Source: Jiangella mangrovi
Lineage (GTDB): Bacteria > Actinomycetota > Actinomycetes > Jiangellales > Jiangellaceae
Direction of reading: 5' to 3'
DNA length: 64,000 nucleotides
Assembly: GCF_014204975.1 (NCBI RefSeq)
Contig: NZ_JACHMM010000001.1
Span: 1,364,001-1,428,000 of the forward strand
The notes below the pieces were generated by a model, which was given only the letters and a program-made list of their open reading frames with translations, was not told where the DNA came from and searched no databases. Below are positions 22,003-31,605 of this stretch, in pieces; the first letter of the stretch is position 1; each line of letters begins with the position of its first letter. The translations under genes and the position numbers were made by a program.

Positions 22003-24552
22003 GTGGAGATGAGCCGCCGCCGAGTGCTGTCGATCCTGTCCGCGGCCGGTCTGGCCGCGGCCGTGCCGCCCCTGAAGGCGGGCGCGTCCCCCGGCCCGGG
22101 AGCGACACCGGGCCCGACACCGGGAACCGATCGGCTGCTCGCCAACACCACGACGATCTTCGCCGGCACGCCGGAGGTGAACACCCACCCGGCCGTCGCG
22201 GCCAAGCTGACCGCCGTCGACAGCACCGCCGCGACCTGGCGCACCGCCCTCACCAACGCCGGGGACGGCGAGCTGTTCGCCGGTCTCCCGCTCGGCACCA
22301 GCGATCCCAACCTCAACGCCAGCTTCCAGCATCTCTACGAGATCGCGCTGGCCACCGCCACCCCAGGGACCACCCTGCACGGAGACGAGACGGCACAGCA
22401 AGAGGTGAAAGACGGCCTCGTGTGGCTGCACGAGCACTACTACGGCGACCAGTCGGCGGGCTACTACGGCAACTGGTTCACCTGGGAGATCGGCATCTCG
22501 ACGCACGTCGGCAAGACCCTCGCGCTGCTCGCGGAAGCGGCCCCCGCCGACCTGACCACTACCTACGTCGCCTCGATGGACGCCTACCTGCGCAACGGCA
22601 CGGACGGCGACGTGAACCTGGACTCGCGGTTCCACACCGGCGCGAACCTCGCCGACATCACGACGAACCGGATGATCCAGGGGGCGCTGCTCGGCGACGA
22701 GGCCCGCATCCGCAAGGCGATCGAGGACCAGCTCACCGTCTTCGCCACCATCGACCCCTACGCGCTGCGCCACGGCAACACCGACGGCTACTACGCCGAC
22801 GGCTCGTTCATCCAGCACCACTCGGTCGCCTACACCGGCTCGTACGGCCGGGCCCTGCTGACCCGGGTCGTGCAGACGCTGAAGATCCTGGACGGGACGG
22901 GGTTCGCCGACGGCGCCGTGCTGGTGCCCGTCGTGCAGCGGTGGGTGACCGACGGGTTCGCGCCGCTGATCTTCGAGGGCTGGATGATGGAGATCGTCAA
23001 GGGCCGGGCGGTCTCGCGGACGGCGACGGGGTACTCCGACGTCGCGACGGTGGTCGAGGCCGTCGTCGACCTCGCCGAGCACGCCGGCGACCAGGACCGG
23101 GGCAGGCTGCGCGGCTACGTGAAGGCGATCCGGTCGACCTCGCGGGCGAGCCTGAACCCGGCCACGTTCGTCTCGCCGGTCAGCGCCGCGGCGTACGCCG
23201 ACCTCGTCGCCGACGACACCGTCGAGCCGGCCGACCTCAATCCGCCGGAGCGCTGCGTCGCGTTCAACGCCATGGACAAGACCGTCCACCGCCGCCCCGG
23301 CTACGCGTTCGCGCTGGCCCGCAGCTCGGACCGGATCAGCAAGTACGAGTACATGAACCACGAGAACCTCATGCCCTGGTTCCAGGGCGACGGCGCGCAC
23401 TACCTGTACCTGTCGGGTGCCGACCAGAGCCAGGCCTTCGGCGTCGACTACTTCACGACGGTGTCGCCGTACGGCCTCGCCGGGGTCACCGCGCCGGTCG
23501 AGGAGCGCCGGACGATCCCGCAGCTCTACGGCACGCCGTACTACGAGAACCCCGGTCACCCGCTGAACTTCACGTCGTCGTCGGAGTCGCAGAACACCTA
23601 CGTCTACTTCCCGCGCGGCACCAACGGCCACTCCGGCGGCGCGACGCTGGGCGCCTACGGGAGCGCCGCGCTGGTGCAGTCGAGCGACGTCGCGTGGGCG
23701 GCGAAGCAGGACGGGGTCCTGCCGGACGACTTCGTGGTCTACCGCAACGCGACGGCGACGAAGTCGTGGTTCCTGTTCGACGACGAGATCGTCGTGCTCG
23801 CCGCCGGGGTCGGGGGTGACGCCGGCCGGGGCGCGACGAGCACCGTCGACGCCCGCATCGCCCCCGCGGCCGACCCGGTGACGGCGACCGGCGCGCTCCG
23901 GTCCGGCGCCTCGTGGACCGGTCCGGGCACCGCCGACCTCGCCTGGCTGCGCTACGCGAACCCGGCGCAGGGCAGCGCGGTCGGCTACGTGTTCCTGTCG
24001 CAGCAGCCGGTCCGGGTCGCGCTGGACACCGTCACGCGCAGCCGCCGCGTGGTCCGCACCTCGAACCCGGATACCGCCGTCACCAAGCGCGTCTTCGGCG
24101 TGGCCGTCGACCACGCGGCCGATGCGGCACCGTCGTCGCACGTCTGGGCGCTGGTCCCGCACGCGACCGAAGCGACCTTGGCGGCGTATGGCACGGCGAG
24201 CCCGATCGAGGTGCTGGCGAACACCGCCGACGTCCAGGCCGTGCGTCACACCGGACTGCGCCTGACCGGCGTCAACACCTTCTCAGCGGGGCCGCACGAG
24301 GCCGGCGGGCTCTCCGTCGATGGACCGGCGTCGGTGCTGGCGCAGACGCGGGCCGGCCGGCTCACCACGGTCGCGGTCTCGGACCCGACGATGGACCGCG
24401 ACGCGATCGAGGTGCTGCTGCCCGGCCGGACGCTGACCCGCGTGGCCGGCGACCGAGCGGTCACCGTCGAGCACACGGCCGGCGGCGCCCTGCTGCGGGT
24501 CGGCACCCACCAGGCCTACGGCCGCTCTTTCGGGATCACCCTGCGCGGCTGA
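22003..24552 (+). CDS. Polysaccharide lyase family 8 (hyaluronate/chondroitin/xanthan lyase type), Tat-exported
   Basis: An 849-residue secreted lyase that would cleave acidic polysaccharides by beta-elimination. The N-terminus has a Tat motif (SRRRVLS), a hydrophobic stretch and a Pro/Gly-rich linker. The alpha/alpha toroid follows, and the catalytic set of the family is visible: Asn215 (TGANLAD), His272 (FIQHHSV) and Tyr281 (TGSYGR), with the normal 9-residue His-Tyr spacing. The beta-sandwich half contains NHENLMPWFQGDGAHYLYL. GTG at 22003 or ATG at 22009 are both usable after the GAGGAGGA site. A LacI-type operator upstream suggests sugar induction. Which polymer is cut is unknown. Confidence 0.88.
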   Translation: MEMSRRRVLSILSAAGLAAAVPPLKAGASPGPGATPGPTPGTDRLLANTTTIFAGTPEVNTHPAVAAKLTAVDSTAATWRTALTNAGDGELFAGLPLGTSDPNLNASFQHLYEIALATATPGTTLHGDETAQQEVKDGLVWLHEHYYGDQSAGYYGNWFTWEIGISTHVGKTLALLAEAAPADLTTTYVASMDAYLRNGTDGDVNLDSRFHTGANLADITTNRMIQGALLGDEARIRKAIEDQLTVFATIDPYALRHGNTDGYYADGSFIQHHSVAYTGSYGRALLTRVVQTLKILDGTGFADGAVLVPVVQRWVTDGFAPLIFEGWMMEIVKGRAVSRTATGYSDVATVVEAVVDLAEHAGDQDRGRLRGYVKAIRSTSRASLNPATFVSPVSAAAYADLVADDTVEPADLNPPERCVAFNAMDKTVHRRPGYAFALARSSDRISKYEYMNHENLMPWFQGDGAHYLYLSGADQSQAFGVDYFTTVSPYGLAGVTAPVEERRTIPQLYGTPYYENPGHPLNFTSSSESQNTYVYFPRGTNGHSGGATLGAYGSAALVQSSDVAWAAKQDGVLPDDFVVYRNATATKSWFLFDDEIVVLAAGVGGDAGRGATSTVDARIAPAADPVTATGALRSGASWTGPGTADLAWLRYANPAQGSAVGYVFLSQQPVRVALDTVTRSRRVVRTSNPDTAVTKRVFGVAVDHAADAAPSSHVWALVPHATEATLAAYGTASPIEVLANTADVQAVRHTGLRLTGVNTFSAGPHEAGGLSVDGPASVLAQTRAGRLTTVAVSDPTMDRDAIEVLLPGRTLTRVAGDRAVTVEHTAGGALLRVGTHQAYGRSFGITLRG

Positions 24553-24801
24553 CCTGCGCGCCGACGCCGCACCCATCGCGCCCAGTAGCTCGCGCCGAAG
24601 TTCCGTCCTGGCCGGCATCATCACGATGGCCAGTACCTGGCCTCGACGCACATGTGAAGGTTAGAGCCGCGAGGGGAATCGCAACACCAGCAGCAAATCC
24701 GCCGAGCGAAGCCTTCCGCCAATGCTCACTATACGGTAGAAAGATCACGTTGGGCCCGTCGCCCCGACGCGACGAGTTCGTTCGCATCCCATGGGGGGAA
24801 C

Positions 24802-27800
24802 GTGTCGCAGATCCTCGAACGGCGCTTCGCGCTTCCATCGACCCCAATCCAAGAAGGCGGCCACGCTCGCCTATTCAAAGCGGTGGACCTAGAACAGAAC
24901 AACCAATCAGTAGCGGTAAAGGTATTCAACCCGACGCGGGTATTCGACGATAAAGTTCTAAGTGCGGCATGGAGCAACGAGCTAACCACCTACCAGGCGC
25001 TGGGTAACCATGAGAACCTTGCGCGCCTCATCGACTGGGGCCGCACCGAAGATGGCGCACCCTATCTGGTCTTTGAGTGGCTTGAGTCAGACCTATTCTC
25101 CGAACTATCGAGCCTTGCGCTCGAAGGGTGGGACGACTTCTGGCCGATCGCCCAGGATATCCTCGCTGGCCTCGCCTTGATCCATGCCGCAGGATTTGTC
25201 CACCGGGACGTAAAACCAGAAAATATTCTGGTCACTGCGGACGGTCGCTATAAGATCGCCGACTTCGGCACTACTCGATTGACTGAGACTGTAAATCTCG
25301 GTATCACAATGGCGCCCCTCGGCACCGCACCATATGCGCCACCCGAACGCGGGACATCAAATCCGACGCCCGCGTACGATATCTACTCGTTTGCCGTGCT
25401 CCTAGTCGTTTGCCTCAGTGGCAAGGTGCCGCAGGACCACAACCGGGCCGCACAACTGTTCCAGGGCCTAGATTTGCCGGCCGACGTTAGCGGCATACTC
25501 GCGCCCGCCCTGCATACAGATCCGGACCAGCGTCCCGACAGCGCCAGTGTTCTTCTGGCGCGAATCAAGGAACTCCAGGATGCCCGGGAACTTCGACGTC
25601 GCGGGGAGCTTGAAGTATTTCTAGACGTCCCAGAACGCGTCATCGAAACCTACGCCAAGCAGTACGGAATGGCATCTAGCACTGCGCCGCTTTCCCAGAT
25701 ACTCGAAGACCTCTCGGCGGTAGGCGCATTCGCGTTCGATCATCGCCAGGAGCGGCCCGATCTTCAGATCGCCGGCCAAACCATCATTTTGAGAGCGCAG
25801 CTCCATAGAACCCGCGCCGGCGTCGTGCGAGTCCAACGAATTAGCCGGCCCCCAGCCCAAGTGCTTGAGTACGCCAGAGCCAACTGGTATCGCTCTCCTG
25901 TGACGCTCCGCACATCAGTTCCCACTGACCCTGCCAAAGCCGCGCAGCAGCTCCACGCGCATCTTGAGCAGGTCAGCCGCCAGGATGCGATCCGAGCTAG
26001 TGCAGAGGTCGAGCAACAAGAAGCGTCCGTCTTCAACTCATGGCGAGGCTCGCTTCGAGCGAAATTCGCGCTAGAGGCAGGGCGCAGCTCGCCGATCAAG
26101 TATCTGAGCTTCCGCACGCAAGGCAGTCGCGTGCGCTTCAAGATAAGCGGGGAAGCGGAGAGCATCGAGGTCAACGAGAGCCGGCTTGTCAGAAGCGGAA
26201 ACCGGCGAGTATTCTACGGCGACATTGAAGGAGTTGAGAATGACGAAGTAATCCTCTATATGACGCGTGGTTCGGCGGCTACCTTGCCCAGCCGTGGCAT
26301 CCTCGAATTTGATGCTGAATCGTCGCGATCAAAACTACGGCGCGAACAGGCCGCGCTCGAGCGCATCGTCGGTAGGCGTTCAGTTCGCGAGGACCTTCGA
26401 GACCTACTTACCTCACCCGCCGCAAGCGCCAAACCTGCACCCTACGAGATCGACCAATTTAGACAGCAAGGCCTAGATCCTGCCAAGCGAGTGGCCGTCC
26501 AGGCATCCCTAGGAGCACGAGACTTCCTTCTCGTACATGGACCGCCCGGCACTGGGAAGACGACATTCATAGCCGAGCTTGTGACTCAGGAGCTGCGGCT
26601 AAATCCGGCCGCGCGAATCGTTCTCGCATCCCAAACTCACATCGCTCTCGACAATGCGCTCATGCGTATACGCGAGATCGTTCCGGAGGCAGCGATGCTG
26701 AGGCTCGGACGCACGGAACGCCTCGCTGAGGATGTCGAGCCGCTCGGCTCGAACGCACAAATGAGCCAATGGCGAGAGGAGGCGGTCCAGCAGAGTCGGA
26801 AGTTTATCGTGGAGTTCGCTCAGCGGAATGGTATAGAAATCTCCGGCCAAGACGTCGAGGGACTTGCGCGAGAGCTCGAGCGCCGCACAGAGCGAGTTAA
26901 GGATTTGCGCTCCAGAATCTCACTGAGGCAGTCCGAGCGGCGCGCGTTGGTGCGGGAGATCGAGTCGATTGATTCGCTTGCGGTGCCCCTTTTAGAGGCT
27001 GCCGACCGCATCGAGCGCGTCACCACGAAGGGCCTGAGTAAGGAGTTGGAGGCTGCGGTCCAACGTTTCATCGAGGTAGGCATCGACGCCGCATCCCGCC
27101 TCGAGTCCGGAGGACCACTCGCAACCCGACTCTTGGCGATGGAGCAGAGTCTCGCCGAGTGGCGCTCGGATCTCCGAGAGCAGAGCTCACAGGAGACCTC
27201 AGCGCGCGCTTCCTTGGCCGCGGCGCTTTCCACTGACGCTGAGAAGCCTTCTGACGAGCTGCTCTCCGTCGCCAAGGAACGCCGCTACAAGTCCGACCCT
27301 CGATTGAGCGCCCTTGACGCGGTCGCTAGCGATTGGCACGAGCGCTTCGGGGTCGGTGCGGAATTCTCGGGTGCGTTGGTAGCCCGCGCCCAGGTGGTTG
27401 CAGCAACATGTGTCGGTCTAACTGGGACACCCGGGGTCGAATTGATTCCATTCGACCTATGCATTATCGATGAGGCTTCGAAGGCCACTGCAACTGAGGC
27501 CCTCGTACCGCTAGCAAGCAGCAGGCGATGGGTATTAGTCGGCGATGATCGACAGCTGCCGCCATTTGTTGATCATGCTCTGAAAGACGTCCGTCTTCTT
27601 GAGCGCTTCAACTTAACGCCGGACGAGATCGGTCAGACGCTATTTTCCGTCCTTGCGGAGCGCTTGCCCGCCGAATGCCGCTTTTCACTCACCCACCAAC
27701 ATAGGATGCACCCCACCATTGGGAACCTTGTCAGTCAGTGCTTTTACGACGGTGCGTTGACGTCTGAGCCCCGCGATCTCTCGGATACTATCAAGATGGC

Positions 27801-28323
27801 ATTTGGTGCGGCAGCCGTCTGGGTAGACACAGCGCGCCGCCCAGACCGAAGTGAAGTTTCTAGCGGAAGCAGCTACAAGAATAAGGGAGAAGCGCGTGTC
27901 GTTACATCCCTCCTTGACCGTCTACAATGGGTCGCGGCACAGCGGTCGGACGAGCTTACAGTCGCCGTTCTGACAGGGTATGACGCGCAACGCCAGGAAA
28001 TTACAGAGTCTCTTGCCCAGGGCGAACACCAGCGAGAAAATCTAAGGGTGAAGGTTGCGACCGTCGATGCCTATCAGGGGCAGGAGGCCGACGTGTGCAT
28101 GTTTAGCGCCACACGTTCCAACAATCGACACGGGCTGGGATTTCTAGCGAGCGAGGAGCGGATCAACGTCGCGCTTTCCCGTGCACGTGATGGTCTTCTC
28201 GTAATTGGCGACGCCAGTTTCATTGATCAGCAAGCCGCTACCCGTCGGAGTCCGTTGCTGACCGTGTTGGAATACATGCGGAGCAACCCAGATTGCCTTG
28301 TGGAAGAATCGAGGGAATCGTGA
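24802..28323 (+). CDS. mkoA: Ser/Thr protein kinase fused to UPF1-like SF1 helicase (type I Mokosh MkoA-like)
   Basis: A 1173-residue fusion. Residues about 8-265 are a complete kinase: catalytic Lys40 (VAVKVF), HRDVKPEN from 134, DFG at 154 and APPE after it. Residues about 270-540 are unassigned. The helicase follows: Walker A GPPGTGKT at 580-587, DEAS near 890, GDDRQLPPF, QHRMHP near 967, and DAYQGQEAD near 1089, then NVALSRAR. A helical insert with coiled-coil character lies between the first two helicase motifs. This order, plus the overlapping PLD gene, matches type I Mokosh phage defence (from memory of the published family). GC content and codon use are clearly lower than in neighbours, indicating transfer. 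The GTG start follows GGGGGGAA. Confidence 0.78.
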   Translation: MSQILERRFALPSTPIQEGGHARLFKAVDLEQNNQSVAVKVFNPTRVFDDKVLSAAWSNELTTYQALGNHENLARLIDWGRTEDGAPYLVFEWLESDLFSELSSLALEGWDDFWPIAQDILAGLALIHAAGFVHRDVKPENILVTADGRYKIADFGTTRLTETVNLGITMAPLGTAPYAPPERGTSNPTPAYDIYSFAVLLVVCLSGKVPQDHNRAAQLFQGLDLPADVSGILAPALHTDPDQRPDSASVLLARIKELQDARELRRRGELEVFLDVPERVIETYAKQYGMASSTAPLSQILEDLSAVGAFAFDHRQERPDLQIAGQTIILRAQLHRTRAGVVRVQRISRPPAQVLEYARANWYRSPVTLRTSVPTDPAKAAQQLHAHLEQVSRQDAIRASAEVEQQEASVFNSWRGSLRAKFALEAGRSSPIKYLSFRTQGSRVRFKISGEAESIEVNESRLVRSGNRRVFYGDIEGVENDEVILYMTRGSAATLPSRGILEFDAESSRSKLRREQAALERIVGRRSVREDLRDLLTSPAASAKPAPYEIDQFRQQGLDPAKRVAVQASLGARDFLLVHGPPGTGKTTFIAELVTQELRLNPAARIVLASQTHIALDNALMRIREIVPEAAMLRLGRTERLAEDVEPLGSNAQMSQWREEAVQQSRKFIVEFAQRNGIEISGQDVEGLARELERRTERVKDLRSRISLRQSERRALVREIESIDSLAVPLLEAADRIERVTTKGLSKELEAAVQRFIEVGIDAASRLESGGPLATRLLAMEQSLAEWRSDLREQSSQETSARASLAAALSTDAEKPSDELLSVAKERRYKSDPRLSALDAVASDWHERFGVGAEFSGALVARAQVVAATCVGLTGTPGVELIPFDLCIIDEASKATATEALVPLASSRRWVLVGDDRQLPPFVDHALKDVRLLERFNLTPDEIGQTLFSVLAERLPAECRFSLTHQHRMHPTIGNLVSQCFYDGALTSEPRDLSDTIKMAFGAAAVWVDTARRPDRSEVSSGSSYKNKGEARVVTSLLDRLQWVAAQRSDELTVAVLTGYDAQRQEITESLAQGEHQRENLRVKVATVDAYQGQEADVCMFSATRSNNRHGLGFLASEERINVALSRARDGLLVIGDASFIDQQAATRRSPLLTVLEYMRSNPDCLVEESRES

Positions 28324-29807
28324 CCACTGCGTCAGTTGAAGAGGTCGTACACAGGTTCTCTCGGCGACCGGGATATCGCCTTGTCACCTACCGGCAGGTT
28401 GGTCTTCCGTTCTGGGACGTGGCTCTAAAGTGTCGCCTTCTGGCGAAGAAGCGGTTGTCAGTCCTGGAAGAATTTGTCCTTCGGTCCGTTGAGGCCGGGA
28501 TTAGACACAGCGACGATGTGTCACGCTTCCTCGGACTTTCGGAGCGTATGGTCGAGAGCATTATGGGAGGTCTTGTCGCCACGCGGCACCTTGCTCCAGT
28601 TAGGTCTAATGGCGCTGCGCCCGAAATACACTTTGTGCTGACTGAGCACGGCAGACTCATTTTGAGTGAACTAGTGGCAATTGTCGCGCAGGAGGAAGTG
28701 CTACGTCTCGCCTATGATGGCCTGACTACTGAGTACAAGGTCGTCGATAACTCTTTGCGATGGCGGCCGCGGGATCTTCGCGACCACGATATTCTGGAGA
28801 TTCCGGCCTTCCCTGCCGATCCGCCAACAGTCGGCCCGTCTGAGACCTCGGCCGTAAGGACCGCATTAGATGATGTGACCCGGAAGGCGGACAAGGAGCT
28901 CCTCACCGTCCTGGGGCTTGCCGAGAAGCGCGAGAAATTCTTTCTGCGCGCAGTTGCGCTTGTATTTGAGTCGGCTGATCGTGCTGATGAGACTTCGGTG
29001 CACTTCATAATCGATGGACGTGCGAGCGAACAGCACGATCTCGCGTTCGCACGCGCAGAAGGTCAACGAAAGCTAGGTATAGTAGGATCACTCCGCGAGT
29101 CGGCATCTGCGGTGGACGCGGTGATCGGGGACCAGCTCGTGGCTCAACGTACCGATGAGACCGAGATCATCGCATTGCGTAGGCTAACCGAGGATTACAA
29201 GAATCAATTGGTAGCCGTCGAGGCACGCACGCTGTCAGCGACGGACCAGCAGCAGGATGATCTGGTTGATAAGGCCTCGACTTTGGCCGTTAAGCTGGAT
29301 GAAGCCGAAGCGGCGCTCGCTGCGATTCCTGTGAGAGTCCTCGAAGTACATGAGCATGCACCGCTTCTCTTCGATGCACTCAAGGGTGCAAGGGAAAAAC
29401 TCCTTATCGTGTCGCCCTGGATACGCGCTGCCGTTGTCACCCCTGCGTTCATGGCCGCCCTCGAAACGCTACTGAAGAAGGGTGTTACCATTTCGATAGG
29501 ATACGGCATTGGCGATGACGGCGGCTCTCACGGCAAGGACAGGGACGCAGAGGCCGCCCTCAAGGAGATGGCGCTCAAGTATGCGAACTTTAACTTTAGA
29601 CGCTTAGGTGACACACATGCCAAGGTGCTCATCCTAGATGAGCGATATGCCGTCGTAACGAGCTTTAATTGGCTATCCTTTAAGGGCGATCCCGACCGCC
29701 CATTTCGAGATGAGCGCGGCACCCTAATAACTCTTGCGTCGGAGATCGAGCGCTTGTATCAAGACTATTTCACTCGCATCTCCAGTAGCCAAGGTAGTTT
29801 ACGTTGA
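28320..29807 (+). CDS. mkoB: Winged-helix and phospholipase D-like phosphodiesterase (type I Mokosh MkoB-like)
   Basis: A 495-residue partner of the kinase-helicase, starting at GTG 28320 inside its stop (GTGA overlap). Residues about 45-115 look like a winged helix (VEAGIRHSDDVSRFLGLSER, then a wing-like ATRHLAPV). Residues about 270-325 are charged and helical, probably a coiled coil. The C-terminus from about 355 is a PLD-type domain: LLIVSPWIR, then the catalytic HAKVLILD with His433, Lys435 and Asp440 (HxKx4D) and the following SFN. Only one HKD motif is present, so the active form is probably a dimer. In the proposed Mokosh scheme it would be the nuclease. It has the same low GC as its partner. 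Confidence 0.75.
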   Translation: MTTASVEEVVHRFSRRPGYRLVTYRQVGLPFWDVALKCRLLAKKRLSVLEEFVLRSVEAGIRHSDDVSRFLGLSERMVESIMGGLVATRHLAPVRSNGAAPEIHFVLTEHGRLILSELVAIVAQEEVLRLAYDGLTTEYKVVDNSLRWRPRDLRDHDILEIPAFPADPPTVGPSETSAVRTALDDVTRKADKELLTVLGLAEKREKFFLRAVALVFESADRADETSVHFIIDGRASEQHDLAFARAEGQRKLGIVGSLRESASAVDAVIGDQLVAQRTDETEIIALRRLTEDYKNQLVAVEARTLSATDQQQDDLVDKASTLAVKLDEAEAALAAIPVRVLEVHEHAPLLFDALKGAREKLLIVSPWIRAAVVTPAFMAALETLLKKGVTISIGYGIGDDGGSHGKDRDAEAALKEMALKYANFNFRRLGDTHAKVLILDERYAVVTSFNWLSFKGDPDRPFRDERGTLITLASEIERLYQDYFTRISSSQGSLR

Positions 29808-29946
29808 TGTTTTTTCCGGGCTGGTCGCTGCCAGCCAGATCGCACGGTAGTTTCCTTGGTGATCTAGCAGGGCGCAATAGGCCGAGGCTGCGTTCGTAAG
29901 CGTGCCGGGCAAGGACCTGATACGTGTAGTCCGGTTAGCAGTCGAG

Positions 29947-30636
29947 CTACGACTGCGCGACCTTGGCGGCGACCGCGAGCTCGTCGACGAGGTCGTTCAT
30001 GGGGTGGCCGGAGTGGCCCTTGACCCAGTGGAAGACGACGTCGCCGCGCTCGTCGACCATGTCGACCAGCGGCTCCCAGAGGTCGCGGTTGGCGACCGGC
30101 GACTTGCTGGAGGTGACCCAGCCGCGGGCCAGCCAGTTGCGCCACCAGCCGTCGCGGAAGCAGTTGACCACGTAGGCGGAGTCGCTGACGACGACCAGCG
30201 GGCCGGAGAGCGCGCGGACGGCCTCGAGCGCGGCCGTGATCTCCATGCGCTGGTTGGTGGTGCTGGGAGCGGAGCCGGAGGCGAACCGGTCGCGGTCGAT
30301 GGCCCACGCCCAGCCGCCCGGGCCGGGTGTGCCGGAGCAGGCGCCATCGGTGTAGACCTCGATGGCACCCTCGGGCGCCGCCATGGCCGCCGGACGCGGC
30401 CGCTTGGCGCGCGCCTTGCCGGCCGAAGCGGCGGAGGTGGGGGCGACGGCGACGAGCTCGCCCTGCTGCGCGCCGTCGGGCAGGTCGATCAGCGCGGGGC
30501 TGGCCGCGCAGTCCGCGTGCACCCATGCACGGTTGCGGCCGCTGCCCGCGCTCTCGATCTCGGCACCCGGCTGGATGTCTCCACCGCACGTTCCACACCG
30601 GCCGGCGAACTTCGCGAGCACGAGCACCTCTCCCAT
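29947..30636 (-). CDS. rnhA: Ribonuclease HI with N-terminal zinc-binding module
   Basis: RNase HI degrades the RNA strand of RNA-DNA hybrids. The 229-residue protein is about 75 longer than E. coli RNase HI because of an N-terminal extension with C14-x2-C17 and H40-x2-C43, a likely single zinc site, followed by an Ala/Lys/Arg-rich linker. The catalytic domain begins at about residue 87, with YTDGACSG, RMEITAALEAV, VVSDSAYVV and HPMNDLVDELA carrying the acidic residues. It is the first host-like gene after the low-GC island and is convergent with mkoB. An in-frame GTG at 30639 is an alternative start. Confidence 0.9.
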   Translation of the reverse strand: MGEVLVLAKFAGRCGTCGGDIQPGAEIESAGSGRNRAWVHADCAASPALIDLPDGAQQGELVAVAPTSAASAGKARAKRPRPAAMAAPEGAIEVYTDGACSGTPGPGGWAWAIDRDRFASGSAPSTTNQRMEITAALEAVRALSGPLVVVSDSAYVVNCFRDGWWRNWLARGWVTSSKSPVANRDLWEPLVDMVDERGDVVFHWVKGHSGHPMNDLVDELAVAAKVAQS

Positions 30637-30693
30637 CACCGAACGACTGACGACTCCCGGAACCTTACCGGCGGGCGCCGACAGGACCGTGGA

Positions 30694-31605
30694 TCACGCG
30701 CGACGACGCAGCAGAACCTCGGCCAGGGCGACATCGGCGGGGTCGAGCGCGGCCTTCCCGTCCTCGATCTCCCACAGCGCGTTCTGCAGGATCCGGCCGA
30801 GCGTCCAGCCCACGGCAGCGGCCCGGTCGACCCCGGCGATCTCGGTGAGAAGGTCGAACCGGCGCAGCACGACCCGCTCGACGTCCCCGGCGACGACGGC
30901 GTCCCAGCGGCTGTTCAGCGCCGGCCAGAGGTCGAAGCCCGGATCGCCGGCCAGCGGCACGGGGTCGATCGCCAGCCACGGCTCCCGCTCCCCGGCCAGC
31001 ACGTTCTGGTCGTGCAGGTCCCAGTGCAGCAACCGGTCCCCGGCGGCGGGCAGCAGGTCGGCGACGGCGTCCGCACAGGTCCGCGTCAACTCGCGTTCGC
31101 CCGCATCACCCAGCAACGACGCCGCAGCGGGCGCCATCGCCACCATGGCGGCCGCGACGTCGGCGAGCCGCGGCAGCCCGGCCGGCGCGGGCCGCACGGT
31201 CAGGCGGGCCAGCAACTCGCCGACGACGGTCATGACGGCGTCGTCGTCGCCCGCCGACGCCAGCGGCCGCGAACCGTCGAGCCGCTCCAGCAGCATCGCG
31301 CCGGTCGCGGCATCGTGGTCGAGCAGCCGGACCGCGCCGTCACCGTCCCACGCGCGCAGCCCGAGGACGGCGACGGTGTTCTCCTCGCCCACCGGCTGCA
31401 GCCGCAGGACCGCGCGCGTGCCGTCGGCGCGGTTGACCGGCACGACCAGCGCCGCCATGCCGTTCCCGGCGGCCCCGTCCGGACGCAGTCCCCACTGCCG
31501 CAGCATCTCGTCGGCCAGTCGCGGCAGTCCGGTCAGCCAGGCCCGCCCGGCGTCGTCGCGCCCGTACGACGCGACGAGCGCGGCCGGCGCCTCGTCGATG
31601 ATCAC
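30694..31605 (-). CDS. Aminoglycoside/hydroxyurea phosphotransferase family kinase (APH(6)/Hur type)
   Basis: A 303-residue antibiotic-kinase-like protein. The catalytic loop is LLHWDLHDQNVLAG near residue 195, followed by the metal motif AIDPVPLAGDPGFDLWP, and both are diagnostic of the APH(6)/hydroxyurea kinase family. The N-lobe contains AVLRLQPVGEENTVAVLGLRAWDGDGAVRLL, with the stretch corresponding to the ATP-binding sheet. It may phosphorylate a streptomycin-like or related compound, but chromosomal members often have no proven resistance role. The GTG start is preceded by TACGAT 6 bases upstream, fitting a leaderless transcript. Confidence 0.83.
   Translation of the reverse strand: MIIDEAPAALVASYGRDDAGRAWLTGLPRLADEMLRQWGLRPDGAAGNGMAALVVPVNRADGTRAVLRLQPVGEENTVAVLGLRAWDGDGAVRLLDHDAATGAMLLERLDGSRPLASAGDDDAVMTVVGELLARLTVRPAPAGLPRLADVAAAMVAMAPAAASLLGDAGERELTRTCADAVADLLPAAGDRLLHWDLHDQNVLAGEREPWLAIDPVPLAGDPGFDLWPALNSRWDAVVAGDVERVVLRRFDLLTEIAGVDRAAAVGWTLGRILQNALWEIEDGKAALDPADVALAEVLLRRRA

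What the first reader, a model, noticed from the sequence alone, without database searches (positions are those of the whole stretch)
24802..29807. Kinase-helicase plus PLD pair: a type I Mokosh-like phage defence module
Two overlapping genes encode a full Ser/Thr kinase joined to a UPF1-like SF1 helicase and a winged-helix protein with an HxKx4D phosphodiesterase motif. Every catalytic motif of kinase, helicase and PLD domain is intact. The helicase-PLD pairing is that of Mokosh, which has been compared with piRNA-pathway proteins. The unassigned 270-residue region between kinase and helicase and the N-terminal winged helix of the partner are worth separate study: they may be the sensor.
Basis: partly seen in the sequence, partly recalled or inferred. 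Interest (0 to 1): 0.8.

Follow-up and report, generated by a model that had tools for sequence, protein, structure and literature searches.

The report
Imported two-gene Mokosh phage defence module
A high-GC bacterium carries a recently imported, intact two-gene Mokosh defence module (a kinase fused to an RNA-type helicase, plus a nuclease); it is a distant but ordinary member of a known family, and some relatives have lost the kinase's or the nuclease's key residues while keeping the helicase.

Summary
Genes at 24802-28323 and 28320-29807 (+) encode a Ser/Thr kinase-UPF1-like helicase and a PLD protein. PADLOC: MkoA E 1.3e-208 (nearly full length, kinase included) and MkoB E 4.5e-73. Kinase, helicase and HxKx4D motifs are intact. 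The pair fills a ~5.4 kb island of 56-60% GC in ~72% surroundings; 11 of 11 congeners lack MkoA, and in 9 of 11 the flanking genes lie side by side. It is a divergent type I Mokosh, about 30-35% identical to the relatives seen. Correction: part of the 'unassigned' linker looks like the UPF1 stalk and 1B barrel (weak model). In relatives the helicase motifs are kept in all 34 MkoA compared; the kinase is dead in 8 divergent loci (all with a PLD motif); the PLD motif is lost in 6 plasmid loci of one clade (all with intact kinase residues and a third gene, a PP2C phosphatase); once the PLD is replaced by another nuclease-like domain. Most likely the helicase is sensor-motor, MkoB the nuclease arm, the kinase a regulator. 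Function was not tested.

The parts
24559..29946 (.). Acquired island: the stretch missing where the flanking genes abut in congener G001 (left match ends at 24558, right match begins at 29947); 56-60% GC per kb against 66-76% in the other 1-kb steps of the window
24802..28323 (+). mkoA: Ser/Thr kinase-linker-UPF1-like SF1 helicase, 1173 aa, GTG start with GGGGGGA upstream
24853..25455 (+). MkoA residues 18-218, protein kinase domain (K40, HRD 134-136, N141, DFG 154-156 intact)
25594..25929 (+). MkoA residues 265-376, unassigned small helix/strand unit between kinase and stalk
   Evidence: weak model; no Pfam family's list has its best stretch there
25930..26409 (+). MkoA residues 377-536, probable UPF1-type stalk helices and 1B beta barrel
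   Evidence: weak model
26476..27570 (+). MkoA residues 559-923, RecA1 with Walker A (580-587), motif Ia and motif II (DEAS 890-893), including the insertion below
26752..27387 (+). MkoA residues 651-862, long helical insertion inside RecA1
   Evidence: weak model; a similar insertion is described for CnuH in PMC11090510
27634..28215 (+). MkoA residues 945-1138, RecA2 with the later helicase motifs
28320..29807 (+). mkoB: winged-helix/PLD protein, 495 aa, GTG start overlapping the mkoA stop by 4 bases
28407..28679 (+). MkoB residues 30-120, N-terminal region conserved across MkoB, probably a MarR-like winged helix
   Evidence: (orthologue L143)
29328..29798 (+). MkoB residues 337-493, single-HKD PLD fold
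29616..29639 (+). HxKx4D motif, H433 to D440 (HAKVLILD)

Best explanation
This is a complete, horizontally acquired type I Mokosh operon. Shown: two coupled genes, intact motifs, match to the family models, a foreign island with an empty site in congeners. Inferred: MkoA patrols RNA (or ssDNA) with its UPF1-type motor; its kinase sets or reports the activated state by phosphorylating itself or MkoB; MkoB docks through its winged helix; its single-HKD PLD, which must pair to make an active site as in Nuc, NucT and Zucchini (recalled), cuts the strand the motor delivers, so phage transcripts are destroyed. The helicase is the indispensable part; kinase and nuclease are modules that lineages can lose or replace separately.
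For: PADLOC MkoA E 1.3e-208 over residues 3-1167 and MkoB E 4.5e-73. An adjacent MkoB or PLD protein in 34 of 38 loci scanned (26 by BLAST; 8 more; exceptions L146, L147, L148, L156). Helicase K586 and R1127 kept in 28 of 28 aligned MkoA, Walker A and motif VI also in the six further divergent ones. The PLD domain matches single-HKD nucleases (NucT 6ehi E 1.7e-5; Nuc 1byr Z 12.9, Zucchini Z about 11, SauUSI Z 13.3). Nearest solved helicases by sequence: SMUBP-2/IGHMBP2 and UPF1; by fold: senataxin-RNA, IGHMBP2-RNA, Upf1. An S1 RNA-binding domain is fused to MkoB in L016 and L143. The PLD is swapped for another nuclease-like domain in L151. Defence neighbours of homologues. Empty site in 9 of 11 congeners.
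Against: No activity was tested. The kinase is dead in 8 loci and has HRE in L040, so phosphorylation cannot be essential family-wide. The PLD motif is gone in 6 loci, so cutting by MkoB cannot be essential family-wide. The substrate is not fixed by the fold: the best fold matches include DNA-cutting enzymes (SauUSI, BfiI), lipid-acting PLDs and non-enzymes (TrmBL2). The MkoA model also rings in 3 of 14 control genomes at E 1e-90 and 4 of 14 at 1e-60, though in none at 1e-120 or 1e-150. L147 (MkoA-model E 1.7e-168 in a 2267-aa ORF) has no MkoB found. The three window neighbours scanned are not defence genes. Both AF2 models are weak (mean pLDDT about 52).
Confidence: 0.85

Rival explanations
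1. It is a type I Mokosh, but the working output is phosphorylation (the kinase acting on host or phage proteins), with MkoB mainly an adaptor; nuclease action is secondary.
For: In the rhizobial plasmid clade (L013, L014, L015, L120, L121, L122) the HKD motif is lost in 6 of 6 while the kinase Lys, HRD, Asn and DYG are kept and a PP2C phosphatase gene with intact-looking motifs follows.
Against: 8 loci have a dead kinase with a PLD motif in the partner; the window has an intact PLD motif and no PP2C; the motif is intact in 19 of 26 aligned MkoB and the domain is replaced by a nuclease-like one in one more.
Confidence: 0.2
2. The pair is a DNA-targeting helicase-nuclease (restriction-like) system rather than an RNA-degrading one.
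For: Fold matches of the PLD include SauUSI, the NgoAVII R-protein and BfiI; UPF1-like helicases act on RNA and ssDNA (stated in PMC11090510 section 9).
Against: Nearest helicases are RNA-associated; S1 RNA-binding domain fused to MkoB in L016 and L143.
Confidence: 0.2
3. It is a cargo or housekeeping RNA-surveillance module of mobile elements, not phage defence.
For: 9 of the 14 plasmid loci opened lie on plasmids typed conjugative; the three window neighbours scanned are not defence genes.
Against: The matching models are of known or candidate defence systems; some chromosomal relatives sit beside BrxL, type IIG restriction, PifA/KAP and SIR2 genes.
Confidence: 0.07

Closest known systems
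Mokosh type I (MkoA + MkoB; Millman et al. 2022, recalled, paper not held)
   Same: Same two genes in the same order with the same domains; PADLOC MkoA end to end and MkoB in part
   Different: Only about 30-35% identical to the relatives seen, on a long branch of a quick tree; the MkoB match covers profile positions 3-380 of 610, while the two-HKD partners of the pseudokinase loci match nearly the whole profile
Mokosh type II (MkoC, single protein)
   Same: UPF1-like helicase and C-terminal PLD: the MkoC model matches MkoA (positions 822-960) and MkoB (981-1133 of 1136)
   Different: MkoC has both in one chain; the window has two genes and a kinase domain
CoCoNuT CnuH-CnuE pair (PMC11090510; passages and section 9, part 1, read)
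   Same: UPF1-like helicase with stalk/OB domain and a helical insertion after Walker A, followed in relatives by a winged-helix protein fused to varied effectors, generally nucleases (HEPN, PLD)
   Different: CoCoNuTs are McrBC-type GTPase systems (CnuB, CnuC); the window island holds no such gene; kinase and PP2C there belong to a separate TerY-P triad
Zucchini/NucT/Nuc single-HKD nucleases
   Same: PLD fold with one HKD motif per chain
   Different: MkoB adds an N-terminal winged-helix region and about 220 further residues before the PLD

Membership tests
Mokosh type I | MkoA: kinase-like domain joined to a UPF1-like helicase, matching the MkoA model end to end | tested here: met
   PDLC03920 E 1.3e-208, residues 3-1167 to profile 5-1107 of 1112. 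Control: the same model rings in 3 of 14 control genomes at 1e-90 but in 0 of 14 at 1e-120 and 1e-150
Mokosh type I | MkoB: PLD protein encoded next to MkoA | tested here: met
   PDLC03922 E 4.5e-73, part of the profile; 4-base overlap; HxKx4D at 433-440
Mokosh type I | Protects bacteria from phages | not testable with these tools
   needs phage challenge
Mokosh type I | Catalytic residues of kinase, helicase and PLD intact (not universal in the family) | tested here: met
   in relatives the kinase is dead in 8 loci and the PLD motif lost in 6
Mokosh type II (MkoC) | helicase and PLD in one polypeptide | tested here: not met
   two separate ORFs
CoCoNuT (CnuH-CnuE with CnuB/CnuC) | McrB/McrC-like genes in the operon | tested here: not met
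   the island holds two genes only; the three neighbours scanned are a family 8 polysaccharide lyase, an RNase H and an APH_6_hur kinase
DISARM DrmC | PLD protein at the DrmC cut-off | tested here: not met
   NF038319 29.4 bits against cut-off 133
PD-T4-6 / MAD6 kinases | kinase at the family's cut-off over the whole protein | tested here: not met
   NF047741 (MAD6) 116 bits against cut-off 460; the PADLOC PD-T4-6 matches cover only the kinase part of the protein (no cut-off given there)

The most novel reading that the evidence does not exclude
Type I Mokosh is a two-output machine built on one helicase: a lineage may keep the nuclease and lose the kinase (pseudokinase loci), or lose the nuclease, keep the kinase and add a PP2C phosphatase (rhizobial plasmid clade), but none of the 34 loci in which both proteins were read has lost both. 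The window would be the form that keeps both, with kinase and nuclease acting in series or as alternatives.
Probability: 0.3. Interest if true: 0.62.

Novelty: new member of a known kind. Interest (0 to 1): 0.4.

Why it matters
For the window itself: a divergent, intact, recently imported Mokosh, a clean case for testing because the insertion holds two genes and nothing else recognised, with the empty site at hand in congeners. For the family: no role for the kinase of type I Mokosh is given in the passages I could read; the natural losses (kinase dead with a PLD motif kept; PLD dead with kinase and PP2C) separate the modules in nature and make 'what is the kinase for?' directly testable.

Tried and rejected
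Chance ORFs: rejected by whole-protein profile E-values. Transposon cargo: no exact shared word of 9 bases or more, direct or inverted, between 24541-24830 and 29771-29970; one search lists only imperfect pairs near the ends (a 25-base direct pair, 76%, 24447/29967, and a 19-base inverted pair, 79%, 24476/29866), not above what such lists give by chance as far as I can judge (no control was run); no integrase in the island; the mode of entry stays unknown. Promoter and terminator scan: 4 promoter-like sites against a shuffle mean of 1.6 (sd 1.3), none in the 250 bases upstream of mkoA; 6 terminator-like sites against a mean of 4.3, none after 29807. Viral carriage: tblastn of MkoB against phages, no match; MkoA against phages, 4 records at E 1e-20, helicase region only, 50% or less of the query; viral contigs, nothing for MkoB and 5 short P-loop matches for MkoA. 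The plasmid search gave 635 records, of which only 21 cover 80% or more of MkoA. PP2C with PLD loss as a statistical association: all 6 cases are one clade, hence one event, and no test was made. A search for further cases in 397 genomes of the order of G716 (taken as rhizobial because G716 holds the closest match to an Aminobacter neighbour protein) found 7 MkoA, 6 of the pseudokinase kind and one (G506, already seen) at a contig end. The MkoA tree is the quick one (the careful one did not finish), warns that long branches meet, and does not hold L162 or L169-L174, so the place of the window is unsure and the 8 pseudokinase loci are not shown to be one clade. PDB search with the MkoB profile: weak hits only, best E 0.03.

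Rows dropped: L147, L148 and L156 (oversized or partial MkoA hits without an MkoB by BLAST) were left out of the tree and motif counts. L146 has no partner because the contig ends. L170 and L171 show identical motifs and lengths, so 8 pseudokinase loci may be 7 distinct ones. In L144 a second regular-expression match at residue 126 was taken as chance. Of 110 flanking ORFs listed 10 were scanned, chosen by length and appearance. 14 plasmid records were opened (13, one).
Full report
What is there. The window lies in a 7.16 Mb one-contig genome at 1364001-1428000. Two genes on the + strand, 24802-28323 and 28320-29807, overlap by GTGA. GC is 56-60% in the five 1-kb steps over these genes and 66-76% in the rest of the window, changing within about 200 bases at each end. 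Left neighbour: a family 8 polysaccharide lyase (22003-24552, +); right neighbour: an RNase H (29947-30639, -). The host is probably an actinobacterium, judged from its GC; no call names it.

Acquisition. MkoA is absent at E 1e-50 from 59 of 59 other genomes searched, among them all 11 of the genus. A DNA search of the genus with 22003-31600 found both flanks in 11 of 11 congeners and no island; in 9 of 11 the two flanks lie within about 300 bases of each other on one contig (G001, G003, G004, G006, G007, G008, G009, G010, G011), in G002 and G005 they are apart or on different contigs. In G001 the flanks abut: the matches end at window 24558 and start at 29947; by the coordinates they also abut in G003. 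Several congeners have a spacer of about 235 bases; by eye, parts of it resemble the first bases of the window's own spacer, so the true left border may lie up to about 120 bases further right. No terminal repeats or target duplications were found. So the island is a two-gene insertion between convergent genes of the genus, by an unknown route.

Identity. PADLOC: MkoA PDLC03920 E 1.3e-208 over residues 3-1167, that is including the kinase; MkoB PDLC03922 E 4.5e-73. NCBIfam and Pfam name only the parts. Relatives are roughly 28-37% identical and lie on plasmids and chromosomes of cyanobacteria, actinobacteria, rhizobia and a verrucomicrobium. Control: the MkoA model also rings in 3 of 14 control genomes at E 1e-90 and 4 of 14 at 1e-60, but in none at 1e-120 or 1e-150; the window's own second UPF1-like helicase scores only 3.8e-43. 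The family is rare: 3 of 396 genomes of the window's phylum, window included, all full length (E 1e-90); 5 of 398 in the phylum of G451, a Massilia, 4 of them with the N-terminal part (E 1e-120); 7 of 292 in the phylum of G450, a Nostoc (E 1e-120); 7 of 397 in the order of G716 (E 1e-150), one of which (G506) was also.

Anatomy. Kinase 18-218; about 265-376 unassigned; stalk and barrel 377-536; RecA1 559-923 with a helical insertion 651-862; RecA2 945-1138. The full-length AF2 model is weak (mean pLDDT 52.6, 3 sequences); Foldseek's best hits are senataxin-RNA, IGHMBP2-RNA and Upf1 over about 800 columns, with TM-scores of 0.13-0.16 on the query, so the placement of domains is not to be trusted. 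In MkoB the PLD part is the better part (block means 62-91 over 341-430, but 55 over the catalytic stretch 431-440; mean 51.8 overall). It matches NucT, Nuc, SauUSI and Zucchini, and as well lipid-acting PLDs, phosphatidylserine synthase and the non-enzyme TrmBL2, so the fold does not fix the substrate. With one HKD per chain an active site needs two chains (established for Nuc and Zucchini; recalled).

What the relatives say. I compared 28 MkoA, 26 MkoB and six further divergent pairs. (a) Helicase K586 and R1127 are kept in 28 of 28 MkoA, and Walker A and motif VI in the six others; the pseudokinase loci have EE for the DE of motif II. (b) Kinase Lys, HRD Asp, Asn and DFG Asp are kept in 25 of 26 proteins outside the pseudokinase loci (L040 has HRE and Asp for the Asn); L016 and L143 have DFA and the rhizobial set DYG. 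In L144, L145 and L169-L174, 8 of 8 lack HRD and DFG; all 8 partners hold an HxKx4D motif in the PLD part, 6 of them two. (c) HxKx4D is intact in 19 of 26 MkoB; degenerate in 6 (L013, L014, L015, L120, L121, L122); absent in L151, where residues 293-432 match the tail of PADLOC's candidate system PDC-S68 (E 2.1e-45) while 20-254 match MkoB (1.5e-34). Its PDF...WEH pattern looks like a PD-(D/E)XK nuclease (motif recalled; Pfam TPD only at E 0.0068). (d) The six degenerate loci, and none of the other 32 loci, carry a gene like their PP2C; it follows MkoB directly (Pfam PP2C E 8.4e-12 for L014). They form one clade in the quick tree, so this is one event. (e) MkoB carries a C-terminal S1 RNA-binding domain in L016 and L143 (E 1.2e-17 and 3.1e-16). 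None of the 34 loci with both proteins read has lost both kinase and PLD motifs; with so few independent losses this is an observation, not a test.

Context of relatives. Ten flanking proteins picked from 110 were scanned; six match defence models at 1e-5 or better: SIR2/ThsA-like (L144), PifA/KAP (L145), type IIG restriction (L150), BrxL (L152), RecD-like (L170) and, more weakly, LmuB (L040); four do not (L142, L154, L173, L174). The ATPase-type matches (RecD-like, LmuB, PifA) may partly reflect shared folds.

Mechanism. Best reading: the UPF1-type motor recognises and moves along RNA; the winged helix of MkoB docks it; the PLD dimer cuts; the kinase gates. The CoCoNuT paper (PMC11090510; passages and section 9, part 1; [quoted passage not shown] MkoA-MkoB fits that plan, so the architecture and effector swapping are known in kind. 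PMC11291487 (passages) says Mokosh degrades foreign viral transcripts and has domain homology to the piRNA pathway; PMC10925250 (passages) places MkoA in the SF1 Upf1 group; PMC12278908 (passage) lists MkoA and MkoC among defence helicases; PMC10952713 (passage) lists PLD-like and NERD domains for Mokosh. The primary paper (Millman et al. 2022) is not held and is recalled. The listings show no title or abstract start on a Mokosh PP2C or pseudokinase form; that does not prove absence, since most subscription journals are not held and one search listed only 12 of 3,744 papers.

Verdict. Observation confirmed, interpretation supported, novelty: new member of a known kind. The interest lies in the separable losses in relatives, not in the window copy alone.

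Noticed in passing
L013 7420-9601, L014 7420-9667, L015 7435-9754, L120, L121, L122: Rhizobial plasmid Mokosh with degenerate PLD in MkoB and a third gene, a PP2C phosphatase with intact-looking motifs; four of the six belong to one close Sinorhizobium/Agrobacterium group.
   Followed up: partly
L144 5998-11252; L145; L169-L174: Divergent MkoA whose kinase-like domain lacks HRD and DFG (pseudokinase) yet reaches E 2e-199 or better with the PADLOC MkoA model; partners carry one or two HKD motifs.
   Followed up: partly
L151 1497-2807 (-): MkoB whose PLD is replaced by a domain shared with PADLOC candidate PDC-S68, probably a PD-(D/E)XK nuclease.
   Followed up: partly
L016 7390-9159; L143 4211-5974 (-): MkoB with an added C-terminal S1 RNA-binding domain, a hint that RNA is the substrate.
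   Followed up: partly
L175 6571-9981 (-) (own genome, about 290 kb from the window): A second UPF1-like helicase, 1136 aa, in the same genome; only its C-terminal part matches MkoA (E 3.8e-43), so not a second Mokosh by this evidence.
   Followed up: partly
congeners at the insertion site, e.g. L020, L021, L023, L024: A spacer of about 235 bases, alike in these congeners, sits between the same two genes where the window has the island; absent in G001.
   Followed up: no
window 30694-31605 (-): Beyond the RNase H lies a gene of the APH_6_hur family (aminoglycoside/hydroxyurea resistance kinase family); the right-flank DNA match reaches over it in most congeners, so it is not part of the island.
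   Followed up: no
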